The notes below the pieces were generated by a model. That model had not been told where the DNA came from. It made no database searches and worked only from the letters and a program-made list of their open reading frames with translations. From the NCBI RefSeq assembly GCF_019603315.1, contig NZ_CP080649.1, forward strand, positions 1,379,501 to 1,443,500: DNA of 64,000 nucleotides, written 5' to 3'. Positions within the stretch are counted from its first letter, which is position 1. Every line of letters starts with the position of its first letter. The position numbers and the translations under genes are program-made. Below, in pieces: positions 60,520 through 64,000 of the stretch. The DNA comes from Ruficoccus sp. ZRK36 (GTDB lineage Bacteria; Verrucomicrobiota; Verrucomicrobiia; Opitutales; Cerasicoccaceae).

Positions 60520-60655
60520 AAGTTGCAGCGGGGTGCCCCCGCTGGCAATGAGGGGCTGTGCCCTTAGTACCTGTCTTATACCGTAGTCGTGTTTGCCATC
60601 CCACCGCGTTGGCGGTGGGATCAGTGCTGCTCCAGCCGGAGTGTGAATAAGTCGT
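60520..60655. repeat. Mosaic palindromic repeat block
   Basis: Contains CCCACCGCGTTGGCGGTGGG (60601-60620) followed by ATCAGTGCTGCTCCAGCCGG, both units also found elsewhere (9178, 37395, 43668). It lies between the divergent sigma operon and nrdB, on the sigma side of the promoter area. Confidence 0.6.
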
Positions 60656-60760
60656 GGATAAGAAAGAACAATTGACCGTTGCGCTGGCGTGGGGCCGGTT
60701 TTTCAATCCTCATACCGTGGCCGTGTTGAGGCTGCGCTGCCTATGAGTATTTGCTGAGTT

Positions 60761-60807
60761 AGGCTATATCTAGTATTCTTTTTCTTATATTCGTCTAGAT
60801 ATAGGGG
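60761..60807 (+). promoter_or_regulatory. Paired NrdR boxes upstream of nrdB
   Basis: Two copies of the NrdR-box core, CTATATCTAG (60764-60773) and its reverse complement CTAGATATAG (60795-60804), have centres 31 bp apart, i.e. three helical turns, the canonical arrangement bound by the repressor NrdR. They lie 137 bases before the nrdB ATG; a TTGACA at 60814-60819 lies just downstream. nrdR itself is not in the window. Confidence 0.88.
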
Positions 60808-60941
60808 GTTGGGTTGACAGGATGGTCATCTGATTCCAAGGTAAGGGCTCTAGGCTCACCACGGTGGTGTTACGGCTTTGTGGCTGCTGCGAATAACACC
60901 GCTTCTCTCACCCGCTAACCCTGATTTCTCTAACTATACAC

Positions 60942-62033
60942 ATGGAAACCACGACGATCACGATTGGGAACAAGACCTTCATCCTCGATAAGGACAAAGC
61001 CGAAAAGGCGCTCGCCTCCAAGGCGGTCATCAATGGCCGCGACACCATGTTCTTCAATATTCTGCCGCTGAAGTACCAGTGGGCCTACGATCTGTACAAG
61101 AACATGAAGGCGAACCACTGGGAGCCCGAGGACGTCCCCATGCAGAAGGACTGCGAACAGTGGCGTGACACATCCGGGGCTATTTCCGACATCGACCGCT
61201 GGATTATTAAAATGGCCGTGGGTTACTTCTCGGCCGCAGAGGGTATTGTCGGGGATAACATCATCCATGTGGTGCGCGAGCTGGTCACGGCCTCCGAGCT
61301 GAAGCTCGTCCTCGGCCGCCACGCGCACGAGGAAAACATCCACGCCGACTCACTGGTCTATATGATCAGCTCGCTCGGCATCAACCCGCACGAGTGCGAG
61401 GCGATGTTTGAGGACATCCCCACCATCGACAAGAAGACTCACTTCGTGGTCTCCAACTCACGCGCCATGCGCCGTGACATTGATCTGACCATCACCCGTA
61501 ACAAGCAGGACCTGGCCAAGAACATGTTCCTCTTTGGCCAATGTATGGAGGGGACGCAGTTCTACGGGCTGTTCGGGATGGTGCTCTCGCTTTACCGCCA
61601 GAACAAGTTCCCCGGCATCGGCCAGATGTTCCGCTACACGCTGCGCGACGAGTCCAACCACATCGAGCTCCTGCGTAACCTGCTCATGGCACTCGTCCAT
61701 GAAAACCCGGACATGTGGACCGCGGAGTTCCGCCAGGAACTGGTCGATATGATGAAGGAAGCCATCGCCCTGGAAAAGGAGTTCATCCGCGACTGCCTCC
61801 CGGTCAACGCGCTGGGCCTCTCCGCCGATGAGTTTGTGCAGTACATCGACTATATCGCCGACCGTCGCCTGGAAGGCTGTGGACTGCCGATCCTCAACCC
61901 CGGCATCTCGAATCCCTTCCCGTGGCTGTCCGAGGCGATCGACATGAAGAAGGAGCAGAACTTCTTTGAGGGTCGCGTGACCGAGTACCAGAAGGCCTCC
62001 GCTCTGGAGTCTGTTGACGACGACGACCTCTGA
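60942..62033 (+). CDS. nrdB: Class I ribonucleotide reductase subunit beta (class Ic-like)
   Basis: A 363-residue R2 subunit that houses the dimetal cofactor starting radical transfer to NrdA. Metal ligands E100, E131, H134, E203, E237 and H240 are all present (SAAEGIVGDN, RHAHEENIHADSL, CMEGTQFYG, RDESNHIE). The residue at the place of the E. coli radical Tyr122 is Leu138 (H-A-D-S-L), and the first ligand is Glu rather than Asp. Both are features of class Ic (Mn/Fe) enzymes such as that of Chlamydia. The C-terminal DDDDL tail would bind the alpha subunit. Two NrdR boxes lie upstream. Confidence 0.92.
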   Translation: METTTITIGNKTFILDKDKAEKALASKAVINGRDTMFFNILPLKYQWAYDLYKNMKANHWEPEDVPMQKDCEQWRDTSGAISDIDRWIIKMAVGYFSAAEGIVGDNIIHVVRELVTASELKLVLGRHAHEENIHADSLVYMISSLGINPHECEAMFEDIPTIDKKTHFVVSNSRAMRRDIDLTITRNKQDLAKNMFLFGQCMEGTQFYGLFGMVLSLYRQNKFPGIGQMFRYTLRDESNHIELLRNLLMALVHENPDMWTAEFRQELVDMMKEAIALEKEFIRDCLPVNALGLSADEFVQYIDYIADRRLEGCGLPILNPGISNPFPWLSEAIDMKKEQNFFEGRVTEYQKASALESVDDDDL

Positions 62034-62160
62034 TCTTTGGTAAAACTGGCAGGGTACGAATTCTCTTTTGCCAACGCCCGATGGAAGCGGTAATTAAATA
62101 ATAAAGCTTTCTCTGGCGCCGGAGCCTGATCGATCCGGTGTTTCTTAGCTAAACATAGAG

Positions 62161-62194
62161 CAGGCCGGGAGTCTTCCCGGCCTGTCTTGTTTTA
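62161..62194 (+). terminator. Terminator after nrdB
   Basis: CAGGCCGGGA (62161-62170) and TCCCGGCCTG (62175-62184) form a perfect 10-bp stem with loop GTCT, followed by TCTTGTTTTA. It ends the nrdB transcript 128 bases after the stop, so nrdA is transcribed separately. Confidence 0.85.
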
Positions 62195-62242
62195 TGAAGT
62201 TCTCAGTCGTGCCCATCGCACTGCGGTGTCCGGCATCGACAC

Positions 62243-62276
62243 AAAAAAGGCCGAAGCAAAATGCTCCGGCCTTTTC
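62243..62276 (-). terminator. Terminator of the PEP-CTERM gene
   Basis: AAAAGGCCG/CGGCCTTTT arms with an inner AGC/GCT pair and a loop. On the minus strand the hairpin is followed by a T-run (from the A-run at 62243-62248), 25 bases after the stop of the PEP-CTERM gene. Confidence 0.88.
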
Positions 62277-62300
62277 AATAAAGTGTGTTGTCCGCGTTCT

Positions 62301-62984
62301 TTATGCGCGCTTGCGGCGGCGGATGATCAGCAGCCCGACCACTCCGAGTCCGGCCAGTAGCGCCCAGGTGCCCGGCTCGGGGACGGCGGTGACCTGGATG
62401 TTATCGAAGGCGAGTGAGGAGGCCAGCGTGACCCAGCTCGATACCCGGATGCGGATGGCGACATTGCTTTGGCCCTCAACGGCCTCGGGGAGGACAAAAC
62501 TCTCCAGCTCCCATGCTTTAGTATCAACGGCACCGCTTTCCGCCCAGTCCACCCAGTTGTTCGCGCCGATCTTGTAGTCGATGTGGATTTCCTGGTTCCA
62601 GGTGAAGGTTCGGTCAGCGATGGCAGCAAAGGAGATCGTGACGTCAGTCATGTTGCTGAAATTGAAGCCCGACATCTCCAGGCGGCCTGATTCACCCAGG
62701 TCGATAATCGAGTTAAACTGCAGCGCGTTGTTCGAAGGGGTGACGGTCCCTTCGGGATAAATGTTTTCCGTCGTGCCGGTCGTATTGCTCAGGTAGTCGA
62801 AGATGTGCTCATTCGGCTCCGCGGTCATGGTGACACTACCGGCCTGGTTACCGTTGTTGGCGGTAAACTTGGCGCTGATCGACGAGTCCGCGTCCATGTT
62901 CCAGTACGCGAGCAGATCCTGTGCGTGGACATGGGCGGTCAATCCGCAGGTGATGAGCGCAATCAAGGTAGCTAATTTCCCCAT
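62301..62984 (-). CDS. PEP-CTERM sorting domain protein
   Basis: A 227-residue secreted protein with signal peptide (TLIALITCGLTAHVHAQD), a beta-sandwich-like middle (AYWNMDADSSISAKFTANNG, NVAIRIRVSSWVTLASSLAF) and a C-terminal PEP-CTERM anchor: VPEPGTWALLAGLGVVGLLI followed by RRRKR. PEP-CTERM proteins are sorted and processed by exosortase in bacteria that make extracellular polysaccharide; Verrucomicrobiota encode many. No exosortase gene is in the window. It sits between nrdB and nrdA on the opposite strand. Confidence 0.88.
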   Translation of the reverse strand: MGKLATLIALITCGLTAHVHAQDLLAYWNMDADSSISAKFTANNGNQAGSVTMTAEPNEHIFDYLSNTTGTTENIYPEGTVTPSNNALQFNSIIDLGESGRLEMSGFNFSNMTDVTISFAAIADRTFTWNQEIHIDYKIGANNWVDWAESGAVDTKAWELESFVLPEAVEGQSNVAIRIRVSSWVTLASSLAFDNIQVTAVPEPGTWALLAGLGVVGLLIIRRRKRA

Positions 62985-63136
62985 AGGGCAGGACTTATAG
63001 GGACTTCCCTTCGGGTGTCGAGCTGTAACCCCTCAGGGCTGTGTTAAAACTTCATTAATGCCGGAGCTTTCGGGGTATTAGCGTTTGTGAACAGAAAGTT
63101 AAGAATTTTTGACTAAAAACCGTTTGACAGATCGGC

Positions 63137-63184
63137 TTACTAGATATTGTGTGTTCGACGTTGGTCCGTTAGCATATCTAGTGT
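63137..63184 (+). promoter_or_regulatory. Paired NrdR boxes upstream of nrdA
   Basis: TTACTAGATATTGTGT (63137-63152) and TTAGCATATCTAGTGT (63169-63184) each match the NrdR box, with centres 32 bp apart. A TTGACA at 63124-63129 lies just upstream, so the boxes would cover the core promoter. The start codon of nrdA is 213 bases further on. Confidence 0.85.
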
Positions 63185-63397
63185 ACGCTCTCACGAACAG
63201 GCATGGGAATAAGAAGCAACAACTTGCCGTTGTTTCGTTCCGATTTTTCGCCATAATACAGGTTTGCTGGCCAGGCGCGATGCCCCGGACCGGTTCTCAA
63301 CCATCTATTCTCGGGAGCACTGCTCCCTTCCTATTCTCCTGCGGTTGATGCCGCTTTCACCTCTTCCGACTCACCACACTTCTCTGAATACTGCCTT
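63185..63397 (+). other. Long leader region of nrdA
   Basis: About 213 bases between the NrdR boxes and the nrdA ATG. A GGGAGCACTGCTCCC palindrome (about 63313-63327) can form a hairpin in the leader RNA. No gene or known riboswitch was recognised. Confidence 0.4.
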
Positions 63398-64000
63398 ATG
63401 ATCCGTAACTTCTCCTTCGATGAAGACCTCGCCCTGAAGCGTTTCGCCGCCACCCCGGCTGAGCAGAAACCGCGCTTCAACTGGCGCGAGGTTATGGCCG
63501 ACGCCTCCGTTAAGCAGCCCGCCGTCAAGATCGAGTCGGGCGGTGAGGAGCGTGACTTCGATGTGGCCGAGGTAGCGGAAATCATCGGTAACGCCCTGAC
63601 CGACCTCATGCTCTCACGCGAAGAGCAGGAGGAAAAAATCTTTACCGAGCAGAACCGCAGCTTTGTCGCTGCTGTCGCCCGTGCCGTCACCGAGCGCCTG
63701 ACCCGTCAGATCAATGACGAGACCGGCGTCAGCCTGACTCAGCGCGAGGTTCACCTGATCATCGAGACCGCCCTCGTGCAGCACGACGCGCATGACGTGG
63801 CTCGCAGCCTTGTCGCCGCGTATTCCCATCATGGCCATAACGGTGCCGACGAAGACGAGCCGGAGATGACGGTGCGCCTCATCCGCCGTAACCGCCAGGT
63901 CGTCCCCTGGGACCCGAACAAGATCGAGGTCGCCGTCCGCAAGGCCTTCCTCGCCCAGCAGATGGACTCCGGCCCTGCCGTGGAGGTCGCCCGTGAGGTC
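63398..64000 (+). CDS. nrdA: Ribonucleotide reductase subunit alpha, N-terminal part (cut by the window)
   Basis: An open frame of 201 codons that runs off the end. After a short lead (MIRNFSFDEDLALKRF) residues ~25-135 form one cone-like helical domain (REVMADASVKQPAVKIESGG, REVHLIIETALVQHDAHDVA), and residues ~154 on begin a standard ATP-cone (VRLIRRNRQVVPWDPNKIEV AVRKAFL). Two cones in tandem are known in R1 subunits of chlamydiae and others; the cone binds ATP or dATP to set overall activity. The catalytic barrel lies outside the window. Paired NrdR boxes upstream support the call. Confidence 0.85.
   Translation, partial: MIRNFSFDEDLALKRFAATPAEQKPRFNWREVMADASVKQPAVKIESGGEERDFDVAEVAEIIGNALTDLMLSREEQEEKIFTEQNRSFVAAVARAVTERLTRQINDETGVSLTQREVHLIIETALVQHDAHDVARSLVAAYSHHGHNGADEDEPEMTVRLIRRNRQVVPWDPNKIEVAVRKAFLAQQMDSGPAVEVAREV

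What the first reader, a model, noticed from the sequence alone, without database searches (positions are those of the whole stretch)
60761..63184. NrdR box pairs with 31- and 32-bp centre spacing in front of both RNR genes
Seen: CTATATCTAG and CTAGATATAG cores at 60764 and 60795, and two 16-bp boxes at 63137 and 63169. Known: NrdR binds pairs of such boxes spaced by whole helical turns in RNR promoters. Inference: nrdB and nrdA, though split into two transcripts by a terminator and an opposite-strand gene, are co-repressed by NrdR when dATP is high.
Basis: partly seen in the sequence, partly recalled or inferred. Interest (0 to 1): 0.7.

Follow-up and report, generated by a model that had tools for sequence, protein, structure and literature searches.

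The report
Paired NrdR operators on split nrdB/nrdA
In this Verrucomicrobiota bacterium the two genes for the enzyme that makes DNA building blocks, normally one operon, have been pulled apart, and each carries its own copy of a known paired repressor site; this is an ordinary regulator in a new place, with some unusual extra targets in sister genomes.

Summary
Box pairs lie at 60761-60776/60792-60807 (centres 31 bp apart) before nrdB and at 63137-63152/63169-63184 (32 bp) before nrdA. The would-refute test fails: the genome has one nrdR, with zinc ribbon, ATP-cone and the DNA-contacting residues. A 48-bp model built only from nrdB operators of other genomes, run over the 3.76 Mb genome, returned four sites: nrdA, class II nrdJ, class III nrdD and nrdB. 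A fifth, weaker pair precedes pabA-nrdR in all 10 family genomes. So this is a genome-wide NrdR regulon, not only 'both RNR genes', which are two subunits of one class I enzyme. In most related Verrucomicrobiota nrdB and nrdA form a tight operon with one pair before nrdB. In this family they are apart in 10 of 10 genomes (1.3 to 233 kb, or different contigs), with different genes in between, yet nrdA keeps its own 31/32-bp pair in all 10. Binding and repression by ATP+dATP-loaded NrdR are inferred from characterised NrdRs, not shown. Extras: a conserved DnaA-box sequence upstream of the nrdB pair, and in sister genomes NrdR-type pairs before gyrB and before a Pycsar-like defence operon. New member of a known kind.

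The parts
60642..60650 (+). TGTGAATAA, a perfect DnaA-box sequence (TTATTCACA reversed); a poorer neighbour CGTGGATAA at 60653-60661
   Evidence: 10/10 in the family alignment; 63 of 84 nrdB upstreams hold TTATNCACA, against 5 sites in 881 kb of control; the same sequence lies 33 bp before dnaA of this genome
60761..60776 (+). NrdR box 1 of the nrdB operator
   Evidence: conserved in the family
60792..60807 (+). NrdR box 2 of the nrdB operator, centre 31 bp from box 1
60814..60819 (+). TTGACA, probable -35 of nrdB; hexamer CAAGGT at 60837-60842 after 17 bp as weak -10
   Evidence: TTGACA 10/10 in the family alignment; promoter inferred
60942..62033 (+). nrdB, class I RNR beta subunit, 363 aa
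   Evidence: PF00268 2e-66; NF005550 over cut-off
62160..62185 (+). intrinsic-terminator-like hairpin after nrdB
   Evidence: 11-bp stem, 8 G-C pairs, CTTGTTTT tail
62301..62984 (-). PEP-CTERM domain protein gene lying between nrdB and nrdA on the other strand
   Evidence: PF07589 1e-6; the intervening gene differs between genera
63124..63129 (+). TTGACA, probable -35 of nrdA
   Evidence: 10/10 in the family alignment; promoter inferred
63137..63152 (+). NrdR box 1 of the nrdA operator
   Evidence: conserved 10/10
63169..63184 (+). NrdR box 2 of the nrdA operator, centre 32 bp from box 1
   Evidence: best hit of the genome-wide scan
63207..63225 (+). conserved element ATAAG..CAACAACTT in the probable nrdA leader, role unknown
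   Evidence: CAACAACTT 10/10 in the family alignment
63398..64000 (+). start of nrdA, class I RNR alpha subunit, 1087 aa, one recognised ATP-cone (residues 162-246); runs on past the window

Best explanation
The two pairs are NrdR operators. When dATP is plentiful, NrdR loaded with ATP and dATP (one tetramer, two zinc-ribbon dimers) grips both boxes of a pair, bends the DNA and represses transcription of nrdB and of nrdA; when dATP falls it lets go. Because a terminator and an opposite-strand gene separate the two genes, each transcript has its own operator, so the two subunits can still be made together. The nrdA operator is shared by the whole family, so operon break-up and gain of the second operator most simply date to the family's ancestor, after which different genes came to lie in the gap. 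Shown: boxes, spacing, conservation, nrdR gene, regulon content, gene order. Inferred: binding, dATP response, repression, promoter positions, order of evolutionary events.
For: Boxes and spacing as stated; chance excluded. One NrdR, 152 aa, over cut-off for TIGR00244 and PF22811 and PF03477; aligns over 148 residues to solved NrdR structures; D15, R17, R26-R29 and R37, named as DNA-contacting in S. coelicolor NrdR (PMC9110341), are present in its sequence. Blind scan of the genome: nrdA, nrdJ, nrdD and nrdB only. In 84 nrdB upstreams the best pair is at 31 or 32 bp in 67; of 60 with score at least 31, 58 are at 31/32. nrdA has a 31- or 32-bp pair in 10 of 10 family genomes, while in loci of other families that hold nrdA just downstream of nrdB no comparable pair is seen before nrdA. 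Different intervening genes.
Against: No binding or expression data. The nrdB pair lies upstream of the conserved TTGACA rather than over the start site, so the way it blocks transcription is unclear. Box 2 of nrdA lacks the conserved C on one side. Scan E-values in the own genome are modest (0.05 to 0.4) and 150 of 193 first-look candidates were scored; the nrdA pairs of G039, G105, G020 and G094 did not reach E 1 in the family scan, though pair scoring finds them.
Confidence: 0.93

Rival explanations
1. Only one of the two pairs is a working operator; the other is a relic kept by short divergence time.
For: nrdA box 2 departs from consensus (GCATATCTAG); nrdB box flanks are poor.
Against: Both pairs are kept in all 10 family genomes while surrounding sequence has diverged and spacing moves only between 31 and 32 bp; nrdA is the best hit of the genome scan.
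Confidence: 0.05
2. The inverted-repeat boxes are sites of another factor, such as LexA, and not NrdR.
For: lexA lies divergently beside nrdD, whose operator sits between the two genes.
Against: Sequence and 15-16 bp spacing match the published NrdR operator; the regulon consists of RNR genes of three classes and the nrdR operon.
Confidence: 0.02
3. The nrdB promoter is mainly set by DnaA, with NrdR a minor input, so nrdB and nrdA are not co-regulated in practice.
For: TTATNCACA in 63 of 84 nrdB upstreams against 5 sites in 881 kb of control; none in the 10 nrdA upstreams; DnaA regulates nrdAB in E. coli (PMC8203912).
Against: NrdR pairs are present at both genes; DnaA and NrdR inputs are not exclusive; DnaA binding here is untested.
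Confidence: 0.15

Closest known systems
NrdR operators of E. coli nrdHIEF, nrdDG and nrdAB (PMC12176259) and S. coelicolor nrdRJ and nrdAB (PMC9110341)
   Same: Two 16-bp palindromic boxes, 15-16 bp spacer, in front of RNR genes; NrdR with zinc ribbon and ATP-cone; an operator at each RNR class
   Different: Here class I is split into two transcripts, each with its own pair; the nrdB pair lies upstream of the probable -35; no experimental data
NrdR of Pseudomonas aeruginosa (PMC4409342)
   Same: NrdR boxes at class I, II and III RNR promoters in one genome
   Different: There topA has a single box; here nrdB and nrdA are apart, topA was not examined, and gyrB has a pair in two sister genomes only
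DnaA control of E. coli nrdAB (reviewed in PMC8203912)
   Same: DnaA-box sequence upstream of a class I RNR promoter
   Different: Different phylum, one perfect box of fixed orientation upstream of an NrdR pair; binding untested

Membership tests
NrdR operator (NrdR box pair) | Two palindromic boxes close to ACACWATATATWGTGT | tested here: met
   imperfect, the 10-bp core of each box departs from consensus at one to three positions
NrdR operator (NrdR box pair) | Centres about three helical turns apart (14-17 bp spacer bound well in vitro) | tested here: met
   15 and 16 bp spacers; published range
NrdR operator (NrdR box pair) | Lies in front of an RNR gene | tested here: met
   nrdB and nrdA
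NrdR operator (NrdR box pair) | nrdR encoded in the same genome | tested here: met
NrdR operator (NrdR box pair) | Bound by NrdR with ATP plus dATP, and represses | not testable with these tools
   needs gel shift or MST and reporter assays
NrdR protein (TIGR00244) | Zinc ribbon with two CxxC plus ATP-cone | tested here: met
   PF22811 and PF03477 over cut-off; CPKC and CLDC in the sequence
NrdR protein (TIGR00244) | DNA-contacting D15 and R17 | tested here: met
   present at positions 15 and 17; residues named
DnaA-regulated nrd promoter | DnaA-box sequence TTATNCACA near the promoter | tested here: met
   60642-60650
DnaA-regulated nrd promoter | DnaA binds and changes expression | not testable with these tools
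   needs footprint and DnaA depletion

The most novel reading that the evidence does not exclude
In this family NrdR has grown from an RNR repressor into a wider sensor of the dATP state: besides all RNR classes and pabA-nrdR, NrdR-type pairs stand before gyrB in G069 and G083 and before a Pycsar-like anti-phage operon (PycC-like cyclase, E2-like protein, PycTM-like effector) in G103 and G105, so that defence would be released when dATP is drained, for example by a phage; and nrdB combines NrdR with DnaA.
Probability: 0.35. Interest if true: 0.75.

Novelty: new member of a known kind. Interest (0 to 1): 0.4.

Why it matters
It is a clean natural case of an operon that broke while both halves kept the same control by each having an operator, and it gives an NrdR regulon for Verrucomicrobiota, for which a full-text search of the held open-access papers found no description. 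The order-wide set of pairs supports the helical-phase rule (31/32 bp) outside the phyla where it was measured. The DnaA-box and Pycsar side findings are directly testable.

Tried and rejected
A first pass seemed to show no pairs in 11 nrdB loci; these were minus-strand loci that the tool does not reorient, and pairs appeared once they were turned. Single-box matches elsewhere in the genome (C1:705000, 495785, 3130949, 3143185, 1000269) had no partner at 31/32 bp scoring above 28 in all and were set aside. Apparent 41-bp pairs in several Verrucomicrobiales look like alignment to a conserved stretch beside a degenerate box 2 at 32 bp. gyrB of the window's genome has no pair. Relatives of the Pycsar-like cyclase were sought in viral contigs, phages and plasmids without a match. 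No paper in the held library joins Pycsar with NrdR.

Full report
What was checked. Scored with a consensus weight table of my own, they give 33.45 and 33.20 out of a possible 39. In 12 Mb of simulated sequence (8 Mb with the window's dinucleotides, 4 Mb with those of the two promoters) no pair at 31 or 32 bp reached 32.5, and in the real window only these two do. The terminator and the opposite-strand PEP-CTERM gene between the two genes are also real.

The regulator. There is one, at C1:3470743-3471198, over cut-off for the equivalog model TIGR00244, with zinc ribbon and ATP-cone, aligning along almost its whole length to the solved NrdR structures. The residues reported to read or hold DNA in S. 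coelicolor NrdR (D15, R17, R26-R29, R37; PMC9110341) are in its sequence; R12 is K12.

The regulon. I aligned 23 nrdB operators from other genomes (two are Cerasicoccus, of this family) and built a sequence-only model. Over the 3.76 Mb genome it returned, up to E 10, only nrdA, class II nrdJ, class III nrdD (both strands) and nrdB (150 of 193 first-look candidates were scored). nrdJ is identified by PF08471 and NF005122, nrdD by PF13597 plus ATP-cone. The nrdD operator lies between nrdD and a divergent lexA, and its second box has a non-canonical centre, as E. coli nrdAB box 2 does. A weaker pair lies before a trpG/pabA-type gene (TIGR00566), which is followed by nrdR; the pair and the gene neighbourhood are kept in 10 of 10 family genomes, with 30 or 31 bp spacing, so NrdR probably also controls itself. 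The window's 'both RNR genes' are the two subunits of one class I enzyme.

The comparison. In 80 relatives from named genomes, nrdB upstreams carry the pair in most cases. Of 84 upstreams the best pair is at 31 or 32 bp in 67; of 60 with score 31 or more, 58 are at 31/32. Relatives are not independent, but the rest of the sequence has diverged. Where nrdA follows nrdB outside this family, the gap is mostly 44 to 250 bp, at most 685 bp, and no comparable pair stands before nrdA. In this family of 10 genomes the genes are apart: 1.3 to 2.1 kb in seven, 19 kb in one, 233 kb in one, separate contigs in one. nrdA has its own pair in all 10. What lies between differs: a PEP-CTERM gene in the window's genus, DNA-methyltransferase-like genes in Cerasicoccus (named by eye from sequence), other genes elsewhere. 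The simplest history is one break and one operator gain in the family's ancestor; a tree-based test was not made.

Promoters. TTGACA is invariant just downstream of the nrdB pair and just upstream of the nrdA pair. If these are -35 elements, the nrdB operator lies upstream of the polymerase site and the nrdA operator overlaps it. Start sites are unknown, so this is inference.

DnaA. TGTGAATAA, a perfect DnaA-box sequence, is invariant upstream of the nrdB pair in the family. TTATNCACA occurs in 63 of 84 nrdB upstreams, 67 sites in 35 kb against 5 in 881 kb of surrounding sequence. Its place relative to the pair differs between groups, in Verrucomicrobiales inside the spacer. The same sequence lies 33 bp before dnaA in this genome. 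None is found before nrdA. DnaA controls nrdAB in E. coli (PMC8203912); here it is a strong lead only.

Sister genomes. The family scan also hit gyrB promoters in G069 and G083 and, in G103 and G105, a three-gene operon: a cyclase-like protein (PADLOC PycC 2e-10 in G103; no model match in G105, but 48% identical), an E2-like protein and a PycTM-like effector. Both operons have a pair 40 to 80 bp upstream, at 31 and 32 bp. The gyrB genes of G069 and G083 were named from their sequence by likeness to the window genome's gyrB, which Pfam confirms. The window's own gyrB has no pair; whether its genome has the Pycsar-like operon was not searched.

Verdict. The finding is correct and its interpretation well supported; binding and repression remain to be shown. 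The kind of system is known.

Noticed in passing
window 60642-60650: Perfect DnaA-box sequence upstream of the nrdB operator, strongly enriched in nrdB upstreams of related Verrucomicrobiota; in Verrucomicrobiales it sits between the two NrdR boxes.
   Followed up: partly
L187:3287-5926 (G103) and L188:3752-6344 (G105): Pycsar-like operon (PycC-like cyclase, E2-like protein, PycTM-like effector) with an NrdR-type box pair a few tens of bases upstream, in two genera.
   Followed up: partly
L184:1983-2029 (G069) and L185:1973-2020 (G083): NrdR-type pair about 60-65 bp before gyrB; in G069 a DnaA-box sequence lies just upstream, in the order seen at nrdB. Absent from the window's own genome.
   Followed up: partly
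L156:1484-1530 (G000:C1:2948477-2948523): Pair between class III nrdD and divergent lexA; box 2 has an off-consensus centre. It could touch lexA as well.
   Followed up: partly
L001:759-805 (G000:C1:3470001-3470047): Weak pair before pabA/trpG-nrdR, kept with 30-31 bp spacing in 10 of 10 family genomes: probable autoregulation tied to a folate or tryptophan gene.
   Followed up: partly
window 63207-63225: CAACAACTT element in the probable nrdA leader, invariant in 10 family genomes, of unknown role.
   Followed up: no
nrdB upstreams of L056, L057, L061, L065, L071, L076, L090, L098, L116, L121: In these Verrucomicrobiales-type loci box 2 of the nrdB operator seems degraded on one side, beside a conserved ATACCACATGAGCAAA stretch.
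   Followed up: no
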